Positions 1,800-8,795 of a stretch of 64,000 bases of DNA are shown here, piece after piece (the stretch's first letter is position 1; the number at the start of each line of letters is the position of its first letter). The DNA is taken from NCBI GenBank assembly GCA_027063305.1, contig JAMORY010000008.1:1-64000 (forward strand), given 5' to 3'. Source of the stretch: Sulfurovum sp. (lineage in GTDB: Bacteria; Campylobacterota; Campylobacteria; Campylobacterales; Sulfurovaceae). A program made the position numbers and the translations under genes. The notes beneath the pieces were generated by a model that saw nothing but the letters and a program-made list of their open reading frames with translations, had not been told where the DNA came from and made no database searches.

Positions 1800-1817
1800 G
1801 GCGTGACAAGTCACGCC
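1800..1817 (-). terminator. Palindrome over the slipin stop codon
   Basis: GGCGTGAC-AA-GTCACGCC is a perfect 8-bp-arm hairpin that contains the slipin stop codon. It has no U-tract, so it may be a Rho-assisted end or mRNA-stabilising hairpin and not a strict intrinsic terminator. Confidence 0.4.
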
Positions 1818-2932
1818 TTGTTCCCCGTAAGGTCGATCATACCGTTCATGACATGCTCCAAACCTCCGTAGACATTGAGTGTGCCTACTTTTTGTACGAC
1901 ATTTTCAAGTGCTTCAAGCTCTTTAAGCCGTGCGAGGGCAGGGTTGTCCTTCATCAGCTTGGCGGTATTGAGCAAAGACCGCATAGCGGCAGTCTCTTCG
2001 CGTCTGGCGATGTTGTGTGCCTCCGCTCTTTTGGTCGCTTCGATGACTTGGTTGAAGATCTCTCGCATTTCACCTGGCAAGATGATATCTTTGATGTGTA
2101 CTGCCTCAACCTTGACTCCTACGCTTTCACATATCTTGGTGAGTTCAGCAAGTACGTCATCACTTAACGTATGCTGCATGGAGAGGAGTGCATCGATCTG
2201 TTTGGCTCCCAAATGCCTGCGCACCGCAAACTGCAGTTGTTTATAAAGGTACGCGTAAGGGTCATCTACAGCCGTCAGGTAGGTCATACCGTCCGTTACC
2301 CTGTAGTGCATGGTCACGTTGCATCTGAGTGTTACTTTATCCGCAGAGAGCAGCTCTTGTCCCGTGATCTCCAGCGCTTTGACACGCGTGTCCACTATTT
2401 GCAGCTTAACGTCATGCAGATCGGTGTAGAAGTAGTGTTTCCCTGCACCGAGTACCTCTACGAAGACTTCATCAAGATAGAAATACGCCTCTTCAGTAGG
2501 GGCGACGATATGTTTTTTGATCCCCCTTGGGGTCGCACTATACATATCGATATATTTCATATGATCTTTGGCTACTTTGTGATCTGCTTTGACATTGACT
2601 TTTTCTACGGTGACATCCAGCTCTTTCCAGTAGAGCTTAAGCTCACCAAGGCTTAACATCTCGGTAAAATTTCCGTCAATGCAGATATAGGCTCTCTCTT
2701 GATCGGCGAGATCGACAACGGTAAAGTACTTCTCTACAAGCTCAGGATAGAGCCTATGTAACGTACGGGCTTTTTCGCCGTCAATACCGTGATCTTTGGT
2801 GTCATACCGCTCTACGCGATAGTTTCTAAAAAGATGAAACATCTTATGGGCTCCGACACCAAGAACGTCGATCAATTTCTCATCTTTGTAGAGCAACGCT
2901 TTTTCATTCTCTTTGACTTTGAGTCTAAACAT
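1811..2932 (-). CDS. Soluble slipin / SPFH (band 7) protein of the RNA-repair island
   Basis: This 373-residue protein has an SPFH core (roughly residues 150-300, with VDTRVKALEITGQELLSADK and the VHIKDIILP segment typical of slipins) and an alpha-helical C-terminus rich in Glu/Ala/Lys (EATKRAEAHNIARREETAAMR). Ordinary slipins begin with a membrane hairpin; here there is none. Instead two related beta-rich repeats precede the core (residues 4-40 and 143-175, both reading ..E.a.lY.DE.l.eVLG.G.H..). SPFH proteins build ring or cage oligomers. The gene is downstream of the tRNA-like RNA and upstream stretch shares its strand, so cotranscription is likely. Slipin homologues have been noted near rtcB in comparative genomics; what the cage does there is unknown. 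RBS AAAGGA precedes the ATG. Confidence 0.85.
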   Translation of the reverse strand: MFRLKVKENEKALLYKDEKLIDVLGVGAHKMFHLFRNYRVERYDTKDHGIDGEKARTLHRLYPELVEKYFTVVDLADQERAYICIDGNFTEMLSLGELKLYWKELDVTVEKVNVKADHKVAKDHMKYIDMYSATPRGIKKHIVAPTEEAYFYLDEVFVEVLGAGKHYFYTDLHDVKLQIVDTRVKALEITGQELLSADKVTLRCNVTMHYRVTDGMTYLTAVDDPYAYLYKQLQFAVRRHLGAKQIDALLSMQHTLSDDVLAELTKICESVGVKVEAVHIKDIILPGEMREIFNQVIEATKRAEAHNIARREETAAMRSLLNTAKLMKDNPALARLKELEALENVVQKVGTLNVYGGLEHVMNGMIDLTGNKA

Positions 2933-2948
2933 TGTAAATCCTTTGATA

Positions 2949-2998
2949 AGGTCAGACCTGCAAACGATTCACTACGTAAATCATTTGAGGTCAGACCT
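2949..2998. promoter_or_regulatory. Twin palindromes AGGTCAGACCT before slipin
   Basis: Two identical 11-bp palindromes at 2949-2959 and 2988-2998, 39 bases apart centre to centre, flank an inverted GATT/AATC pair. They lie 17-66 bases upstream of the slipin ATG. They may be a pair of protein sites or two small hairpins at the 3' end of the tRNA-like RNA. No TATAAT box is seen between them and the slipin start. Confidence 0.5.
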
Positions 2999-3019
2999 AT
3001 GATTGTTAACTGCACTACG

Positions 3020-3102
3020 GAGCAGGGTGGAGCATACGGGTCTGTCGGTGCAAGCAGAAGCGCTCTTTGCCGATGTTTCCGTATGCTGCAAGACCCTTGC
3101 TC
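3020..3102 (-). ncRNA. Long interrupted hairpin at the 3' part of the tRNA-like transcript
   Basis: On the reverse strand GAGCA (3102-3098) pairs with TGCTC (3024-3020), GGGT with ACCC, and GCATACGG (3086-3079) with CCGTATGC (3039-3032), enclosing a further TCGG/CCGA stem. This makes one long interrupted helix like the stem of a Y RNA. It is not a tRNA shape and contains no convincing coding sequence. Confidence 0.5.
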
Positions 3103-3149
3103 TGGTAGGTGTAGTCTTTTTATTGTTCAAGATACGCTCTTGAGGGCGT

Positions 3150-3236
3150 TATTGTAAAGTGTCCAAAACACTTTGCCTTACCGCTTGGCTACATACATTC
3201 TTTATGTATGGCGGGATTCGAACCCGCGAATCAATA
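3150..3236 (-). ncRNA. Permuted tRNA-like module B
   Basis: Reading the reverse strand: TATTG, ATTC, a canonical T arm GCGGG-TTCGAAT-CCCGC (3227-3211), acceptor strand CATACAT, loop AAAGA, acceptor strand ATGTATG, TA, a Gln-like D arm GCCAAGCGGTAAGGC (3189-3175), a 6-bp hairpin with loop TTTTGGA, then CAATA, which pairs with the initial TATTG. The acceptor stem is therefore closed by a loop and the molecule opens where the anticodon arm would be. The loop TTTTGGA resembles a tRNA-Gln(UUG) anticodon loop. Confidence 0.65.
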
Positions 3237-3240
3237 GGAT

Positions 3241-3305
3241 GTGATGCTCTAACCGCTAAGCTACATGCCTTTTGGCATGGCAGGAATCGAACCTGCGATA
3301 ATCAC
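3241..3305 (-). ncRNA. Permuted tRNA-like module A
   Basis: Reading the reverse strand: GTGAT, TATC, a canonical T arm GCAGG-TTCGATT-CCTGC (3296-3280), acceptor strand CATGCC, tetraloop AAAA, acceptor strand GGCATG, the usual TA at positions 8-9, a D arm GCTTAGCGGTTAGAGC (3261-3246), and ATCAC, which pairs with the first GTGAT. All tRNA parts except an anticodon loop are present but in circularly permuted order, as in the tRNA-like module of bacterial Y RNAs. Confidence 0.7.
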
Positions 3306-3406
3306 ATGGTGGAATATCACACATATTCTACGAGGTGCATTCTGATACACGCTCGGCATTGCCAAGGCGCAAGTAGGTAGCAGATGAACTACCTTTGCAC
3401 AGTGCT

Positions 3407-3441
3407 ATTATAGGGAGTATTTCGGTCATATTATGTCCGAA
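3407..3441 (-). promoter_or_regulatory. Operator and promoter of the tRNA-like RNA
   Basis: On the reverse strand the imperfect palindrome TCGGACATAATATGACCGAA (3440-3421) is followed after 8 bases by TATAAT (3412-3407). The rtcB promoter has the same palindrome with two or three changes, the same 8-base spacing and the same -10. The palindrome covers the -35 region, so a dimeric regulator bound there would directly affect RNA polymerase. Confidence 0.75.
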
Positions 3442-3454
3442 TGAAATTTGCGCT

Positions 3455-4366
3455 TTAGAGGGCTTCAAGCTTCTTTTTAAGGGTGCGTTTGATCATCTTG
3501 TTGAGGTTTCTTGGAGCGATGATGCGGATCTTAGGCAGCCATTTGATGATGAGCTCTTCGATCTCTCTGGGGTTGGTGATGCGGTAGTGTACCTCAATGT
3601 CACCGTTATCGAAGGTGTGTACCACCTCTTGGGAAGGGAGGTACTTCTTTTTGAGGAAAAATCGTCGGATGTTCACTTCGACACGAAGCCGTACGAGAAC
3701 TTCTTCTTTACCGAACGCCGCCCAAGGGGTCTGGAGGTTTTGAAAAAAGGTGTCGACCTTTTTGTCGATGAAGAAGCACCGTTTTGTGTATTCGACATCC
3801 TCTATCATGGTTACCCTACGATACTCAACATGGTGTTTGGAGCTGTTGATACCCACAAGATAAAAGTTTTCGTTGAGAAAGAGGATCTTGTAAGGCTCGA
3901 AACGGGTTTGAGAGGTGGCGCGTTCGGTACGGTAAGTGAGCTTGATCTCTTTGCGGAACTTGATGGCATGTTCTATCTTTTTGACCACTTCATGGTTTTG
4001 CATATTCTCAAACGGACGCGATTTGAAATCATACACCAGCATCGATTTGTCTATGAGGGCTTGTGTCTGCTCGGAGATGAGACTTTGCTTTTGAGTCACG
4101 CCAAAAAGGTTGACGATGTTTGCAAGTGTCATGAGATCAGTTGCATGCAGCACCTCGTCAAGCAGCACTTTTTTGTACGCCCTGTAACACTCCCCCTCTT
4201 TGGACATAAAGTCGCCGAATAGCTCACGGATCAGCGCAAAGTCACGCCGAACGGTACGGTCGCTCACCCTATACTCATGTGCCAACCGTGTGACACAAAG
4301 CTGTTTGCCGTCATTGAGGCGTTTGAGTATTTCGATGGTGCGGTATAGGCTGGATTTTTGGCTCAT
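3455..4366 (-). CDS. WYL-domain transcription regulator (HTH-WYL-WCX)
   Basis: A 303-residue protein: an N-terminal DeoR-type winged helix (residues 5-60, RLAHEYRVSDRTVRRDFALI recognition region), a WYL domain (about 130-205, with the degenerate core KLTYRTE...RFEPYKILFLNENFYLVGI) and a C-terminal WCX-like extension. WYL regulators such as BrxR, CapW, PafBC and DriD bind palindromic operators as dimers and respond to nucleic-acid ligands or damage signals. The start codon overlaps the stop of the upstream small gene by 4 bases (ATGA), so the two are cotranslated. Lying between the shared operators, it is the obvious candidate for binding them; rtcB operons usually use the sigma54 activator RtcR instead, which is absent here. 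Confidence 0.87.
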   Translation of the reverse strand: MSQKSSLYRTIEILKRLNDGKQLCVTRLAHEYRVSDRTVRRDFALIRELFGDFMSKEGECYRAYKKVLLDEVLHATDLMTLANIVNLFGVTQKQSLISEQTQALIDKSMLVYDFKSRPFENMQNHEVVKKIEHAIKFRKEIKLTYRTERATSQTRFEPYKILFLNENFYLVGINSSKHHVEYRRVTMIEDVEYTKRCFFIDKKVDTFFQNLQTPWAAFGKEEVLVRLRVEVNIRRFFLKKKYLPSQEVVHTFDNGDIEVHYRITNPREIEELIIKWLPKIRIIAPRNLNKMIKRTLKKKLEAL

Positions 4367-4746
4367 TTTGTTTTGCCTATCATCACAAAGTATTCATCTC
4401 TGACATCCTCATCGATGACGACACCTTTGTTCCCGCCATAGAGTCTGTCGTTTTGGTCTTTTCTTGGACCGCTTATCCAGTAGTGTTCTCCGGTATCAAC
4501 ATCGTAATAATTAGCTTTGAACCCCATGCCTTTAAGACTTTGAAATCGTTTGTCTTTGTAGTAGAGACTTTTACCCGATTTTGAAAAGTAGACACGCCCA
4601 ATACGTGCATCTCCTTCAAGACCTCCACCTTTATTTTCAATATACATAATACGCGACTTGAGATTTTTTTTGGAGGGTATGATCCAGCCGTCAGGGGTCT
4701 GTTGTTCCTGTTCGCTTATGGCAGTAGTATTGTTATTTTTATTCAT
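4363..4746 (-). CDS. Small conserved protein upstream of the WYL regulator
   Basis: With the ATG at 4746 (GGGAAG about 7 bases upstream) it has 127 residues; an in-frame TTG at 4764 would add six Lys-rich residues but overlaps the operator. After a polar N-terminus comes a compact conserved-looking unit: YIENKGGGLEGDARIGRVYF, SKSGKSLYYKDKRFQSLKG, FKANYYDVDTGEHYWISGP and VDEDVRDEYF-like end. I recall similar short proteins in many bacteria, sometimes mislabelled as deoxyxylulose-phosphate synthase; they are far too short for that enzyme. No catalytic motif is evident. Overlap with the WYL gene suggests a joint role. Confidence 0.8.
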   Translation of the reverse strand: MNKNNNTTAISEQEQQTPDGWIIPSKKNLKSRIMYIENKGGGLEGDARIGRVYFSKSGKSLYYKDKRFQSLKGMGFKANYYDVDTGEHYWISGPRKDQNDRLYGGNKGVVIDEDVRDEYFVMIGKTK

Positions 4747-4756
4747 CTTTTTCTTC

Positions 4757-4790
4757 CCGGACAAAATATGTCATTGAAATATTGTACCAT
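4757..4790. promoter_or_regulatory. Divergent promoter with third operator copy
   Basis: CCGGACAAAATATGTC (4757-4772) matches the left half of the rtcB operator; the right half is degenerate. On the plus strand TACCAT (4785-4790) can serve the small ORF at 4819 and the gene at 4895. On the minus strand TACAAT (4786-4781) lies 35 bases before the ATG at 4746. Two divergent transcripts could thus share one regulator site, which would autoregulate the WYL gene. Confidence 0.55.
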
Positions 4791-4818
4791 CTTTTCAACA
4801 AAAAACAAGGAGTAGAAC

Positions 4819-4929
4819 ATGACACATACATTCGTAACATGGAACGGACAAACGCAACAGCGAACAAAACAACAAAAGAGAGATAGGAAAAAGGATGAAG
4901 ATCATTTCCAAATTTCAAGACTATTATGA
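4819..4929 (+). CDS. Short ORF overlapping the next gene (36 residues)
   Basis: AAGGAGT lies just before the ATG, and the frame encodes MTHTFVTWNGQTQQRTKQQK followed by a basic stretch and a stop at 4927-4929. It overlaps the start of the 250-residue gene at 4895, so it may be a small protein or a translational coupling leader. Strong RBS and position after a promoter support translation; no homology is recognised. Confidence 0.5.
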   Translation: MTHTFVTWNGQTQQRTKQQKRDRKKDEDHFQISRLL

Positions 4930-5647
4930 CATAGGCATTGCCTATGGGGTAGATGAGAAGCTGAGGTTTAAAAGAGTTAGCAAGGAGATGCCGACAATTG
5001 TACAAGAGCTGCGAAGCATCATCAAGGTGGTTTATCGGAAGCAGTCTCAATACTACAGGATATTATGCAGTTTTAATGTGATGCTTTTTTGCGGCAAGGC
5101 TTATCCTTTGGTTTACATAAGTATAGAGAAGATCAAAAAAGTCAACAAAAAATTCACCTATGAATTGGCAGATGATACTTACTGTTATGATCTGAATGGA
5201 GTGGATGAGTATATATCTGAGCATTATAAACCGCTGGATGAGATCAAAGATGATTACGAGAGACTGGGGTATAGCTGCTGGAACAGAAACACGCTCAAAA
5301 AGTATGTGAAAGAACACTTTACGCAGGATTTTGCACAGTCATTGTCACTATTTGATGTCTATAAAAAACCATACTTTTATTTAGAGTCGATACGTCGGGT
5401 AGATGAAAAAGGATTTGAGCACACAGAGACAAAAACCATTCTTTTGCCGCAACTCAAACAATATAAGTTTGCAAAAACGGTACCGCCGATGCAGGCCTTT
5501 CAGGAGATCAGTATGTATCTGGGAAAATTAGACCTGACAGAAGACAATACGGTGACGATAGATGATAAGTATCTGGCTCTTGGTAAGGGGTTTGATTGCT
5601 ATTCGTTCAAGAAGATGCCTAAGAAAAGAGAAAAGAAGAGGTGTTGA
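4895..5647 (+). CDS. Unknown protein of the RNA-repair island (250 residues)
   Basis: Not assigned to a function. Visible features: N-terminus KIISKFQDYYDIGIAYGVDE, a central FCGKAYPLVYISI strand, a Tyr/Asp-rich middle, and a conserved-looking tail DDKYLALGKGFDCYSFKKMP ending in a very basic KKREKKRC. No signal peptide or membrane segment. The ATG has AGGA about 7 bases upstream (aaaaaggatg region) and overlaps the preceding short ORF. I have the impression of a widespread uncharacterised family with the same opening and closing motifs, but cannot verify it. Its shared promoter site links it to rtcB and the tRNA-like RNA; the basic tail would suit nucleic-acid binding (inference). Confidence 0.8.
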   Translation: MKIISKFQDYYDIGIAYGVDEKLRFKRVSKEMPTIVQELRSIIKVVYRKQSQYYRILCSFNVMLFCGKAYPLVYISIEKIKKVNKKFTYELADDTYCYDLNGVDEYISEHYKPLDEIKDDYERLGYSCWNRNTLKKYVKEHFTQDFAQSLSLFDVYKKPYFYLESIRRVDEKGFEHTETKTILLPQLKQYKFAKTVPPMQAFQEISMYLGKLDLTEDNTVTIDDKYLALGKGFDCYSFKKMPKKREKKRC

Positions 5648-6655
5648 TCACCTTTCTATTGTTTGCCATAGCAAAGATTTTCCGTCTCTTACCCATACTC
5701 CACCACTTGATGAGTTTAAATGTACGCCACACACCCAGTCGTCTATACCATTCTCTTGGATCATATTTATCTCTCCGGAAAGTACTTTCTTTGCATTAGG
5801 CAAGATATCTATTTTGGTCTCTCTCATGGGCAAATTAAATGCATTGGTTTTAATAAGAGGCTTTTTGAGACTTGGTTTTCCAAGATTTTTTAAACGGCTG
5901 AAAAGATAATCATCTCCAACTGTGTCTAAATTATATTTAGCATGGAACTCATAGCCTAAAACGTCACCAATGATTCTTGCACATTTGGGGTGATGTTTTT
6001 GTGCAGATTCCAGTAAAACTTTATCCCAATAGGGCAAACCGGTTTTTATATCAGGATAGCGTAAAAATAAAAACCCTAAAGCTTTTGTCAACAAAAATAA
6101 ATGATTTATGTCGCCATGTAGGTGTTTCAAATACTTTTTCGGAGTAGGTGAAGTTACGGCTTCCCAAGCACCTTTGGCTACAGCTATTTGTTTGTCGGTC
6201 AATGTGTAAGGGGTAGGATGATTTTTTATCTCTTCTGCATGCAGCAGTGCTATTCCCCAAGCTTCTATATCGAAATGTTTTCTCTTGATTGTTTCAAATT
6301 GGTATACTGAAAGCTTTTGTATATCCAGTTCATGGTAAATAATAAGATGTATTATAAAAGCAAGAAGTAGTTGATCCCCCAATCCTGTGCCTATCCATAG
6401 GTTGTAACTATCTGCTGACTTAAAATCATTGAAGTTTGTATAAAAGTCCCTTGCAATTTCATGAAACACTCTTTGCGAATACGGGTCAAGGGTATGCCAA
6501 CTTTTTTCTCTAAATGTTTTCCATGATTTTATGTCAGTATATGTTTTGAGTGCTCCATAGGATAATACGTCATTAAAAATGAGTATTTCCTCTTCCGGTA
6601 TTTCAAATGCTTTTTGAAAAAGAGCAGCTGCAGCTGTTCCGTGTAGTATGTTCAT
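5648..6655 (-). CDS. DUF1835-like protein of unknown function
   Basis: A 335-residue soluble protein. The N-terminus MNILHGTAAAALFQKAFEIP...ILIFNDVLSYGAL follows the DUF1835 pattern (short strand, GD/GT loop, helix, then a strand with D.L..GP-like turn). The middle is helical; the C-terminus KINMIQENGIDDWVCGVHL... has a beta-rich look. The catalytic role of this family is not established. It is convergent with the 250-residue gene (they touch at 5647/5648) and divergent from rtcB. An operator-like site at 6703-6738 is upstream. Codon usage is more A/T-rich than neighbouring genes, which hints at recent acquisition. Confidence 0.7.
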   Translation of the reverse strand: MNILHGTAAAALFQKAFEIPEEEILIFNDVLSYGALKTYTDIKSWKTFREKSWHTLDPYSQRVFHEIARDFYTNFNDFKSADSYNLWIGTGLGDQLLLAFIIHLIIYHELDIQKLSVYQFETIKRKHFDIEAWGIALLHAEEIKNHPTPYTLTDKQIAVAKGAWEAVTSPTPKKYLKHLHGDINHLFLLTKALGFLFLRYPDIKTGLPYWDKVLLESAQKHHPKCARIIGDVLGYEFHAKYNLDTVGDDYLFSRLKNLGKPSLKKPLIKTNAFNLPMRETKIDILPNAKKVLSGEINMIQENGIDDWVCGVHLNSSSGGVWVRDGKSLLWQTIER

Positions 6656-6702
6656 TGTCGACTCTAAATGTTTTTAAACAGTATAGCAAGAAATGAAAGA
6701 TA

Positions 6703-6738
6703 TTTCGAATCAAATATTTCAATGAGATATTGTACCAT
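6703..6738. promoter_or_regulatory. Fourth, degenerate operator-like site
   Basis: The stretch from TCGAATCAAATATTTC to ATATTGTACCAT aligns without gaps to the site at 4757-4790 with the last 12 bases identical. On the minus strand it places TACAAT (6734-6729) about 75 bases upstream of the gene starting at 6655. It lies 50 bases from the rtcB operator. Confidence 0.45.
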
Positions 6739-6787
6739 GTCCCAATAAAATTGAATCTACAGATAAATTGGTATATTGAACATCCTT

Positions 6788-6821
6788 ACGGACAAAATAC
6801 GACCGAAATACCCTCTATAAT
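6788..6821 (+). promoter_or_regulatory. Operator and promoter of rtcB
   Basis: ACGGACAAAATACGACCGAA (6788-6807), then ATACCCTC, then TATAAT (6816-6821). The tRNA-like RNA promoter on the other strand at 3440-3407 has the same layout base for base with few changes, including spacing. This is the strongest evidence that rtcB and that RNA are coregulated. Confidence 0.8.
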
Positions 6822-6851
6822 ATGCCTGATAAAACAAAATAGGAGTAGAAA

Positions 6852-8186
6852 ATGGATCTGCGATCATACGGATTTTTAGAGATCGACCATGAAACGTTCA
6901 AAGCAACGGGTACACCCTACAAAGTCTATGCCGAGTTGCTCGATGAAACTTCGCAGGCACAGTTTGCCGATGTGTTGGAACAACCCTATGTTACTTACGG
7001 GGCGTTGATGCCTGATGCGCATGCGGGTTACACGATGCCTATCGGGGGTGTCTGTGCGACCAAAGATGTAGTCGTGCCGCAGTTTGTCGGTTTTGATATT
7101 GGGTGTGGGATGTGTGCGTACAAAACGGACTTTAGCAAAGAGGAGGTAACGGTATATGCACAAGCGATATATGATGGTATTGTCTCAACCGTACCGCTTG
7201 GCTTTGCTACCCACAAGGATCACCAGTCGTTCAAGTACGATCTGCCGTTGACCGACTTTGCCAAAAAGGTACTGGAGAGTACGGGGCTTAAACAGCTTGG
7301 AACACTTGGTGGTGGGAACCATTTTATCGAAATCGGTTACGGCTTGGATGATAAGGTGTGGATCGTGATCCACTCCGGATCGCGCGGATTTGGGCACAAG
7401 ATAGCATCGCACTACATGGTACAGGCATATTTGCAGGTACATCCGAGTGAAGGAGTGTTGGAGAAGGTGGTGGCAGACTGGGAGGCGCGTAATGTAAAGT
7501 TCAAAGAGGCAAACCCGCAGGGGTATGCAAAGGCACTTCAAAAGTTTACGCTCAAGCAGACGATGGAGATGAACAAACGTATGAAACCCGATAACATCAA
7601 GGGGATCTACGGTTTGCATACCGATACGCTATTAGGGCAGGAGTATGTAAAAGATCAGCATTTTGCTTTGTACTTTGCGCTGGAGAACCGAAAACGGATG
7701 ATCGAAGCGATCCATGCTGTGATGAACAAGACACTTGGCAAACAAAATAAGATCGTGTTTGAGGATGAGATGCGTTTTATCAACCGTAACCATAATCATG
7801 CGGAGTTCGATACCGATAGAGGAGAGTGGATACACCGCAAAGGGGCGACCCATGCCAAAGAGGGAATGATGGGTGTCATCCCCGGCAATATGCGAGACGG
7901 CTCGTTTGTTGTCAAAGGAAAAGGGAATGAGGAGTCGCTCTTTTCATCATCACATGGTGCCGGACGGGTTATGAGCCGTGTCAAAGCCAAAAAGTCCGTA
8001 AGCATGGAGCAGTTCGAACGCTGTATGGAGGGGATCACGGGTACGGTCGATGTCAATACGCTGGATGAATCACCGTTTGCCTATAAAGATATTTTTGAAG
8101 TGATGCGTTTGCAAGAGGATCTGGTGGAGGTGGTAGAACACATCCGTCCGATCATCAATGTCAAAGACAAGCCTAAGCAGCGGTAA
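6852..8186 (+). CDS. rtcB: RNA ligase RtcB
   Basis: RtcB joins RNA 2',3'-cyclic phosphate or 3'-phosphate ends to 5'-OH ends using GTP and Mn2+, and repairs cleaved tRNA and rRNA. The 444-residue protein has all family signatures: MPDAHAGYTMPIGGV (D55, H57), GFDIGCGMC (metal-binding Cys85), GGGNHFIEI, the IHSGSRGFGH loop, NHNHAE, and the SSSHGAGR motif near residue 368 whose His is guanylylated. AGGAG lies 6 bases before the ATG. It has its own regulated promoter. No rtcA cyclase or archease is adjacent. Uma2 follows after 54 bases and may be cotranscribed. Confidence 0.96.
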   Translation: MDLRSYGFLEIDHETFKATGTPYKVYAELLDETSQAQFADVLEQPYVTYGALMPDAHAGYTMPIGGVCATKDVVVPQFVGFDIGCGMCAYKTDFSKEEVTVYAQAIYDGIVSTVPLGFATHKDHQSFKYDLPLTDFAKKVLESTGLKQLGTLGGGNHFIEIGYGLDDKVWIVIHSGSRGFGHKIASHYMVQAYLQVHPSEGVLEKVVADWEARNVKFKEANPQGYAKALQKFTLKQTMEMNKRMKPDNIKGIYGLHTDTLLGQEYVKDQHFALYFALENRKRMIEAIHAVMNKTLGKQNKIVFEDEMRFINRNHNHAEFDTDRGEWIHRKGATHAKEGMMGVIPGNMRDGSFVVKGKGNEESLFSSSHGAGRVMSRVKAKKSVSMEQFERCMEGITGTVDVNTLDESPFAYKDIFEVMRLQEDLVEVVEHIRPIINVKDKPKQR

Positions 8187-8240
8187 TGAGCAGGTTTGTA
8201 AAATTATGTTACAATAATACCAAACAGTTCCAAGGAGCAT

Positions 8241-8795
8241 ATGATGGGTGCACTCAGAGAGGAAGATCTTCCGAACTATACCTATGAAGATTACTTGTTG
8301 TGGGAGGGTGATTGGGAAATGGTTGAGGGTATTGCGTATGCCATGAGTCCTGCACCGACAATAACGCATCAGGAGATCAACGGTAATATCTACTCTGCGA
8401 TGAAAGAAGCACTTCAAAATTGCAAGAATTGCAAAGTGTTACCTGAAGTCGATTGGAAGATTGCAGATGATACTGTGGTGCGCCCCGACACTCTTGTCGT
8501 TTGCAACCTTAAAGATCGAGGTGCGGCTTTAGAGCAGACACCTAGTATTATCTTTGAGGTACTCTCTCCTTCAACCAAAAAGAAAGACAGAAACCTCAAA
8601 TATAACCTTTATGCTTCCCAGAAGGTCAAGTACTACATTATGGTTGATCCTGCGGGGATGTTCGCAGAGGTATATCGACTTAATGAGAACGGCGTTTACC
8701 GTATGGAAGGGGAGTTCAAATCTGAGTGTTACCATTTTGATATCGGTGGATGTGCGTTTGATTTCTCATTTGAAACGGTGTTTGATATAGACTAA
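8241..8795 (+). CDS. Uma2 family protein (PD-(D/E)XK-like, DUF820)
   Basis: 184 residues with the Uma2 pattern: opening YTYEDYLLWEGDWEMVEGIAY, MSPAP.ITHQEINGNI, PEVDWKIADDTVVRPDTLVV and IIFEVLSPSTKKKDRNLK, then YYIMVDP. These supply the acidic and Lys residues of the restriction-endonuclease-like fold. The family is abundant in cyanobacteria and often near mobile elements; its substrate is unknown. RBS AAGGAG precedes the ATG. It follows rtcB on the same strand. Confidence 0.85.
   Translation: MMGALREEDLPNYTYEDYLLWEGDWEMVEGIAYAMSPAPTITHQEINGNIYSAMKEALQNCKNCKVLPEVDWKIADDTVVRPDTLVVCNLKDRGAALEQTPSIIFEVLSPSTKKKDRNLKYNLYASQKVKYYIMVDPAGMFAEVYRLNENGVYRMEGEFKSECYHFDIGGCAFDFSFETVFDID

What the first reader, a model, noticed from the sequence alone, without database searches (positions are those of the whole stretch)
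1811..8795. RNA-repair-like island with slipin, tRNA mimic RNA, WYL regulator and RtcB
Within 7 kb sit a soluble slipin, a noncoding RNA with two permuted tRNA-like modules, a WYL regulator, three uncharacterised proteins, RtcB and a nuclease-fold Uma2 protein. The known bacterial RNA-repair operon uses RtcR (sigma54, CARF) and often RtcA, Rsr and Y RNAs. Here RtcR, RtcA and Rsr are absent and WYL, slipin and extra proteins take their place, with a shared operator tying the parts together. I infer a system that senses broken RNA or DNA and repairs tRNA, with the tRNA mimic as scaffold, decoy or sensor.
Basis: partly seen in the sequence, partly recalled or inferred. Interest (0 to 1): 0.93.

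Follow-up and report, generated by a model that had tools for sequence, protein, structure and literature searches.

The report
RNA-repair regulon with tRNA-mimic RNA
A campylobacterial genome carries a switchable kit that appears to mend broken RNA: an RNA ligase, a ring-forming scaffold protein and a roughly 400-letter RNA containing inside-out copies of transfer RNA, all tied together by one regulator and its DNA binding site; related kits exist elsewhere, but this RNA design and its control are not catalogued in Rfam.

Summary
The locus encodes a soluble slipin, a structured RNA with two circularly permuted tRNA modules, a WYL regulator and RtcB. RtcR, RtcA and Ro60 are absent from the whole genome. 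The shared operator is real: GGACANNATAYGWCC, exactly 11 nt upstream of a -10 box, in front of the RNA and rtcB, plus a third site at the WYL promoter.

The RNA's 5' domain occurs in exactly the 6 of 175 family genomes with an intact full-length slipin locus. In relatives the same operator drives rtcB, rtcB2-prfH and a tRNA-Ser, partly on separate contigs. The tRNA modules and a 5' three-way junction covary strongly. Un-permuted, the last module reads as tRNA-Gln(UUG).

Uma2 and the DUF1835 protein are not supported as members; orf250 sits in RtcB2's slot.

The kind is not new: from memory, Burroughs and Aravind (2016) described SPFH/Band-7 modules with a cognate tRNA-like RNA in RNA repair, and I found slipin orthologs behind tRNA-like RNAs in Photobacterium and Subdoligranulum. 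New are the permuted, concatenated RNA and the WYL operator regulon. The job of the RNA (scaffold, decoy or sensor) is inferred, not shown.

The parts
1811..2932 (-). slipin (SPFH/Band-7) protein, 373 aa, no membrane segment, duplicated SPFH1-like N-terminal beta domain
   Evidence: Pfam Band_7 7e-21; max 19-residue hydropathy 1.06; internal repeat E 1e-7; AlphaFold model matches stomatin Z 15 over 159-287 and other SPFH rings
2990..3400 (-). structured noncoding RNA upstream of the slipin (transcript start inferred from the -10 box)
   Evidence: fold z -8.4; aligned in 8 relatives
3335..3400 (-). RNA 5' domain: three-way junction (GUGYA/UGCAC, GGNAG/CUNCC, UUGC.../...GUAU)
   Evidence: 95.2% of cells paired, 27 double-change cells vs 8.3 in shuffles; model R1 finds it only in slipin-positive genomes
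3246..3296 (-). permuted tRNA module 1: T arm, closed acceptor hairpin, D arm
   Evidence: Rfam YrlA 42.6 bits; 13 modules 99.4% paired, 38 double changes vs 10.6
3156..3227 (-). permuted tRNA module 2: T arm, closed acceptor, D arm (3227-3175) and anticodon arm with loop UUUUGGA (3174-3156); mimics tRNA-Gln(UUG)
   Evidence: ARAGORN after un-permuting: tRNA-Gln(ttg), also in L036, L037, L053; ttg in 0-3% of shuffles
3009..3116 (-). RNA 3' domain: long irregular stem with conserved CUUG and CUCCGU segments
   Evidence: conserved columns and similar folds in 8 relatives
3424..3438 (-). WYL-type operator GGACATAATATGACC, 11 nt before -10 TATAAT (3412-3407) of the RNA-slipin transcript
3455..4366 (-). 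WYL regulator (HTH-WYL-WCX), 303 aa
   Evidence: orthologs of 56% identity or more in about 30 family genomes, in several next to rtcB, rtcB2 or a LMW-PTP-like gene
4363..4764 (-). orf133, small protein ahead of WYL in the same transcript (ATG probably at 4746); not conserved in relatives
4759..4773 (+). third operator copy GGACAAAATATGTCA between divergent WYL transcript (-10 TACAAT, 7 nt away: autoregulation) and orf250
   Evidence: same arrangement at WYL | rtcB2 in L046, L047
4819..4929 (+). 36-aa basic leader ORF overlapping the start of orf250; same position as the leader ORF of rtcB2 in most relatives checked
4895..5647 (+). orf250, in the slot held by rtcB2-prfH in relatives; PHROG 4243 (unknown function)
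6790..6804 (+). operator GGACAAAATACGACC, 11 nt before -10 TATAAT of rtcB
6852..8186 (+). RtcB RNA ligase, 444 aa, with GGGNHF, HSGSRG and SHGAGR segments
   Evidence: Pfam RtcB 1e-85; operator-linked rtcB also in L047, L099, L104, L110, L121
5648..6655 (-). DUF1835/DUF3658 protein: lies inside the island but membership not supported
8241..8795 (+). Uma2-fold protein: neighbour, membership not supported (in L089 a 74% relative lies between WYL and der)

Best explanation
This is a WYL-controlled RNA-repair regulon. SHOWN by sequence: one operator sits in place of a -35 box at a fixed 11 nt from the -10 of the RNA-slipin and rtcB promoters, and just downstream of the -10 of the WYL promoter. INFERRED: on a damage signal (most likely a single-stranded nucleic-acid fragment bound by the WYL domain, as in DriD and PafBC) WYL activates the RNA-slipin transcript and rtcB while limiting its own synthesis. 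The slipin oligomerises into a ring or cage and binds the ~400-nt RNA. The RNA carries one to three circularly permuted tRNA modules, in several lineages ending in a tRNA-Gln(UUG) look-alike, which cannot act in translation because their acceptor ends are closed. The RNP then works as a platform that captures broken tRNA-like RNA or the damaging enzyme, and RtcB (plus RtcB2-PrfH in relatives) re-seals 2',3'-cyclic-phosphate breaks. Confidence: operator regulon about 0.85; RNA repair as purpose about 0.75; RNP platform or decoy about 0.5.
For: Operator with fixed geometry: 8 RNA promoters in 8 genomes, found without a spacing constraint, all give exactly 11 nt to a TAYAMT box; tabulated with rtcB and tRNA-Ser promoters. 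With the -10 included: 18 perfect sites in system genomes, 0 in 8 control genomes. Sites outside the RNA loci precede rtcB (G023, G163, G168, G026), rtcB2-prfH (G023, G168) and tRNA-Ser(GCU) (G168). RNA/slipin co-occurrence 6 of 175 genomes, Fisher p 1.9e-10. Covariation: 5' domain, tRNA modules. All slipin loci with intact upstream DNA carry the modules. rtcB2-prfH, shown to protect E. coli from colicin E3 (PMC9223846), lies beside WYL in L046 and L047 and beside the slipin in L035. Distant slipin orthologs sit with RtcR, RtcB or RlaP. WYL activators PafBC and DriD are triggered by ssDNA and PafBC replaces -35 recognition (PMC11804915, PMC12340889).
Against: No expression, binding or repair data. 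WYL orthologs are more widespread than the slipin and RNA, so the RNP is an optional module and rtcB can be run without it. G026 has RNA, slipin and a 1-mismatch operator but no WYL hit at E 1e-20 (draft genome). PafBC was not activated by ssRNA (PMC11804915), so the signal may be DNA damage rather than RNA damage. L046 and L047 lack a clear anticodon arm and L035 reads Gly(UCC), so tRNA-Gln mimicry is not universal. ARAGORN's tRNA call itself is not specific after un-permuting.
Confidence: 0.58

Rival explanations
1. The RNA is a cis-acting leader of the slipin mRNA: its tRNA-like modules bind synthetases, tRNA nucleases or ribosome factors and tune slipin translation, with no separate RNP.
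For: The RNA always directly precedes the slipin in the same orientation, with the ribosome-binding site right behind the 3' domain. No separate promoter for the slipin was seen.
Against: No terminator-like or RBS-sequestering switch common to the set was seen; the conserved architecture is far larger than a leader needs; tRNA modules persist although gene order, regulator (WYL or RtcR) and module order change.
Confidence: 0.25
2. The RNA is a decoy for anticodon nucleases or tRNA-modifying toxins (Gln(UUG)-type in several lineages), and the slipin merely displays or stores it.
For: Gln(UUG) anticodon arm with 5-bp covarying stems and 7-nt loop in window, L036, L037 and L053; tandem copies would raise decoy dose.
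Against: Anticodon arm missing in L046 and L047, different in L033 and L035. [quoted passage not shown]
Confidence: 0.25
3. A general WYL-regulated defence or DNA-damage island in which rtcB and slipin are two of several unrelated effectors.
For: In G163 the operator precedes a 496-codon frame matching PADLOC MkoA models; Uma2 matches a PADLOC candidate family; WYL proteins often regulate defence (PMC4012209, PMC9122601).
Against: Most other operator targets identified are RNA-repair or tRNA genes.
Confidence: 0.2

Closest known systems
SPFH/Band-7 RNA-repair systems with a cognate tRNA-like RNA (Burroughs and Aravind 2016, NAR gkw722; recalled from its abstract, full text not held)
   Same: Band-7 protein, tRNA-like RNA directly upstream, RNA ligase in the same system, lateral spread
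   Different: Whether that paper describes permuted tandem modules, the 5' and 3' domains or a WYL operator could not be checked; RlaP is not among the neighbours here
RtcR-controlled rtcBA / rsr-yrlBA-rtcBA operon (Salmonella, E. coli)
   Same: RtcB; a tRNA-like noncoding RNA; induction logic by a ligand-binding regulator
   Different: No RtcR, RtcA or Ro60 in the genome; WYL and a sigma70-type promoter instead of sigma54; slipin present
YrlA (Rfam RF02553) Ro60-bound Y RNA
   Same: T arm, closed acceptor hairpin, D arm in permuted order
   Different: Score below the gathering cut-off; no Ro60 partner; modules repeated one to three times inside a longer RNA with added 5' and 3' domains; anticodon arm present in several
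PaFlo8 in the P. aeruginosa rtc locus (PMC13086221)
   Same: SPFH gene embedded with rtcB, rtcA and rtcR
   Different: RtcR-type control; its RNA was not examined here
Anabaena TrcR regulon (PMC10272220)
   Same: One regulator controls rtcB, a slipin operon (alr0739-0740) and a tRNA operon, reminiscent of the rtcB, slipin and tRNA-Ser targets here
   Different: TrcR is an RHH repressor relieved by translational stress, not a WYL protein
WYL activators DriD and PafBC
   Same: HTH-WYL-WCX layout; operator replaces the -35 element
   Different: Targets here are RNA-repair genes; ligand unknown
RtcB2-PrfH (PMC9223846)
   Same: Present under the same operator in relatives
   Different: Replaced by orf250 in the window

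Membership tests
SPFH/Band-7 + tRNA-like RNA repair system | full-length SPFH protein of this subfamily | tested here: met
   orthologs full length at 32-36% in Citrobacter, E. coli, Burkholderia, Photobacterium, Subdoligranulum
SPFH/Band-7 + tRNA-like RNA repair system | cognate tRNA-like RNA directly upstream | tested here: met
SPFH/Band-7 + tRNA-like RNA repair system | RNA ligase in the same system | tested here: met
   rtcB under the same operator
SPFH/Band-7 + tRNA-like RNA repair system | RlaP nucleotidyltransferase (present in E. coli and Subdoligranulum loci) | tested here: inconclusive
   none among window neighbours; whole genome not searched
RtcR-rtcBA operon | RtcR activator | tested here: not met
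RtcR-rtcBA operon | RtcA cyclase | tested here: not met
RtcR-rtcBA operon | RtcB ligase | tested here: met
YrlA / Ro60 RNP | Rfam YrlA gathering score | tested here: not met
   42.6 and 27.1 bits vs 69
YrlA / Ro60 RNP | Ro60/TROVE partner | tested here: not met
WYL activator (DriD/PafBC type) | HTH, WYL and WCX domains | tested here: met
WYL activator (DriD/PafBC type) | operator in place of the -35 box | tested here: met
   (position only; binding by this WYL not shown)
WYL activator (DriD/PafBC type) | activation by a single-stranded nucleic-acid ligand | not testable with these tools
   needs protein and ligand in vitro
Vault particle | MVP-like repeats plus SPFH shoulder | tested here: inconclusive
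   model 2-330 on MVP 271-691 Z 10.3, rmsd 7.6, 225 aligned; N-terminal part alone only Z 4.0, resembles SPFH1 more
Vault particle | TROVE protein (TEP1-like) | tested here: not met

The most novel reading that the evidence does not exclude
A bacterial vault-like ribonucleoprotein: the slipin forms a closed shell by stacked SPFH-type domains, packs a ~400-nt RNA made of concatenated, circularly permuted tRNAs, and serves as a damage-induced compartment where broken tRNA or rRNA is held for RtcB, a Ro60-free counterpart of vault RNA/TEP1 and Y RNA particles.
Probability: 0.15. Interest if true: 0.9.

Novelty: new variant of a known kind. Interest (0 to 1): 0.66.

Why it matters
It gives a concrete, testable anatomy to a poorly understood RNA-repair module. 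The operator is defined to the base, so its regulon can be listed in related genomes. The RNA has covariation-supported domains that can be built and bound in vitro. The control by WYL links nucleic-acid-fragment sensing to RNA repair in bacteria that lack RtcR. The RNA itself, tRNA modules kept only in inside-out order with closed acceptor ends, is an unusual case of tRNA mimicry with a clear suggestion (Gln(UUG) in several lineages) of what it mimics. A related slipin-RlaP locus sits in about 30% of complete E. coli genomes (1,624 of 5,426), so the biology can be approached in a laboratory species.

Tried and rejected
Burroughs and Aravind 2016 and Chen 2014 are not held, so prior art rests on memory and citing papers. 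No slipin relative in phages or IMG/VR. R1, the 5'-domain model, finds nothing credible in the Proteobacteria and Clostridia loci, so the 5' domain is Campylobacterota-specific or too diverged; in the phylum sample it is found only in the window genome (1 of 397). No solved structure matches the WYL protein by sequence. The E. coli slipin leader does not fold clearly better than shuffles (z -1.4) and its tRNA-like part is reduced to one T arm by eye. PADLOC gives no system call for slipin or RtcB. Vault reading: N-terminal domain alone gives only Z 4 to MVP. BLAST of the un-permuted module against E. coli hits only tRNA-Gln but at E 2, so it is not counted as evidence. A search for a second tRNA-Ser(GCU) copy in G168 by DNA similarity found only the operator-linked one; a divergent copy cannot be excluded.
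Full report
WHAT IS THERE. The window lies in a 2.03-Mb, 99.96% complete genome of the Campylobacterota. Between der and an mscS gene sit, in order: slipin (1811-2932 -), an RNA (about 3400-2990 -), WYL (3455-4366 -), orf133 (-), orf250 (+), a DUF1835/DUF3658 protein (-), RtcB (6852-8186 +) and Uma2 (+). Whole-genome searches find no TROVE/Ro60, RtcR or RtcA and a single RtcB.

THE RNA. Rfam sees two partial YrlA matches and a tRNA match across their junction. Read out, each module is T arm, acceptor stem closed into a hairpin, D arm: a circularly permuted tRNA. Slipin orthologs were found by protein search in 7 of 175 genomes of the family, in genome contigs and in the order. Every one with intact upstream DNA carries such modules directly ahead of the slipin: three in L033, two in the window, L035 and L053, one or two in L036, one in L037, L046 and L047. 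Over 13 modules, 99.4% of 169 cells pair and 38 cells are double changes, against 10.6 on average and 20 at most in 1,000 shuffles. The last module in the window, L036, L037 and L053 continues into a 5-bp, 7-nt anticodon arm. Un-permuted, ARAGORN reads all four as tRNA-Gln(ttg); L035 reads Gly(tcc); L033 is undefined; L046 and L047 have none. The tRNA call alone is not specific, but ttg arises in only 0-3% of shuffled anticodon segments. L036 and L037 are from one genus, so this is three independent lineages.

Upstream of the modules is a three-way junction of about 70 nt (95.2% of cells paired, 27 double-change cells against 8.3 in shuffles, and 7 or fewer when slid). Downstream is a long irregular stem with invariant CUUG and CUCCGU segments. 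No Rfam family other than tRNA and YrlA covers it convincingly. A covariance model of the 5' domain alone finds 6 of 175 family genomes, exactly those with an intact full-length slipin locus; the seventh slipin is cut off by its contig end (Fisher p 1.9e-10). In a 397-genome phylum sample only the window genome has it.

THE OPERATOR. The palindrome GGACANNATAYGWCC stands exactly 11 nt before a TAYAMT -10 box at all eight RNA promoters and at rtcB in the window and L047, found by a weight matrix without a spacing constraint (tabulated with further sites). It covers the -35 position and no good -35 box is visible, the layout of an activated promoter (inference). At the WYL promoters of the window, L046 and L047 the same box lies 7 nt downstream of the -10, the layout of autorepression (inference). 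In the own genome the only two perfect matches, and a third with one mismatch, fall in this locus. With the -10 box included there are 18 perfect matches in the system genomes and none in eight controls. Sites away from the RNA precede rtcB in G023, G163, G168 and (one mismatch) G026, rtcB2-prfH in G023 and G168, a tRNA-Ser(GCU) gene in G168 (one mismatch) and a 496-codon frame matching PADLOC MkoA models in G163. The later sites were found with the spacing fixed, so their spacing is not independent evidence; their gene identity is. Binding of this operator by this WYL protein is inferred from co-occurrence and position, not shown.

THE GENES. The slipin has no hydrophobic segment and repeats its SPFH1-like beta domain. 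Its model matches stomatin, HflK and prohibitin rings and, more loosely over its whole length, major vault protein; the N-terminal part alone resembles SPFH1 more than a vault repeat. WYL orthologs occur in about 30 of 175 family genomes, more widely than slipin and RNA; several sit beside rtcB, rtcB2 or a LMW-PTP-like gene, and operator copies recur there. WYL therefore looks like a general RNA-repair regulator and slipin-RNA an optional module. orf250 occupies the position of rtcB2 relative to WYL, including the operator and a short basic leader ORF at +60 that overlaps the main gene; it belongs to an unnamed phage and plasmid family. orf133, DUF1835 and Uma2 have no counterpart at the other slipin loci.

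ELSEWHERE. Full-length orthologs at 32-36% identity sit in Citrobacter (RtcR, slipin, nucleotidyltransferase), Photobacterium (RtcR, two canonical-order tRNA-like units, slipin, an RtcB-like ORF), Burkholderia (tRNA-like unit, slipin), Subdoligranulum (a weak WCX/WYL-type protein, permuted T-acceptor-D module, slipin, RlaP) and 1,624 of 5,426 E. coli genomes (slipin, RlaP). RlaP is an RNA-ligase-associated polymerase-beta enzyme described in the work of Burroughs and Aravind (PMC7824862, citing NAR 2016). The regulator (RtcR or WYL) and the order of tRNA parts (canonical or permuted) change; slipin behind a tRNA-like RNA stays.

PRIOR ART. From memory, the abstract of Burroughs and Aravind 2016 names SPFH/Band-7 modules with a novel tRNA-like molecule as scaffolding cofactors of RNA repair. 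The text is not held, so I cannot say how much of the RNA they drew. PaFlo8 lies in the P. aeruginosa rtc locus (PMC13086221). In Anabaena, TrcR represses rtcB, a slipin operon and a tRNA operon (PMC10272220), a striking functional parallel.

HOW IT PROBABLY WORKS. WYL proteins PafBC and DriD are switched on by ssDNA in the WYL domain, and PafBC replaces -35 recognition (PMC11804915, PMC12340889). By analogy this WYL is activated by a nucleic-acid fragment and turns on the RNA-slipin and rtcB. SPFH proteins form rings or cages; the slipin probably holds the RNA, and the RNA's closed-acceptor tRNA mimics bind whatever recognises tRNA: the nuclease, the repair enzyme or the broken tRNA partner. 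RtcB seals 2',3'-cyclic-phosphate ends (family knowledge); RtcB2-PrfH in relatives protects against colicin E3, which cuts 16S rRNA (PMC9223846). Shown: conservation, co-occurrence, structure and operator geometry. Inferred: ligand, activation, RNP formation and substrate.

VERDICT. A real, conserved, unusually well delimited RNA-repair regulon; a new variant of a known kind rather than a new kind.

Noticed in passing
4819-4929 (+): Short basic leader ORF (36 aa) between operator and orf250; similar 25-55 aa ORFs at +60 (+10 in L109) ahead of rtcB2 in L046, L047, L090, L091, L109 and L114, overlapping the main gene. Could be a leader peptide or translational coupling.
   Followed up: partly
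L035:14449-14542 (L123): A lone tRNA-Ser(GCU) gene next to prfH carries the operator and -10 box at the usual 11-nt spacing, as if a spare tRNA were induced with the repair genes.
   Followed up: partly
L120:1501-3032: Operator-driven 496-codon frame behind rtcB2-prfH in G163, matching PADLOC MkoA models: the WYL regulon may include defence genes.
   Followed up: no
E. coli L127:4001-6277: Slipin-RlaP locus in 1,624 of 5,426 complete E. coli genomes, next to a zeta toxin family gene, with a sigma54-like promoter (CTGGCACGCTTCTCGCAAT) and a T-arm-bearing leader.
   Followed up: partly
2951-3000: Window-specific near-palindrome AGGTCTGACC...AGGTCTGACCT flanking a 27-nt inverted repeat between the RNA 3' domain and the slipin start; absent from relatives.
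   Followed up: no
L047:6828-7800: LMW-phosphatase-like 111-aa gene and a 215-aa gene follow WYL in L046 and L047; the LMW-phosphatase-like gene also lies near WYL in L086 and L089.
   Followed up: no
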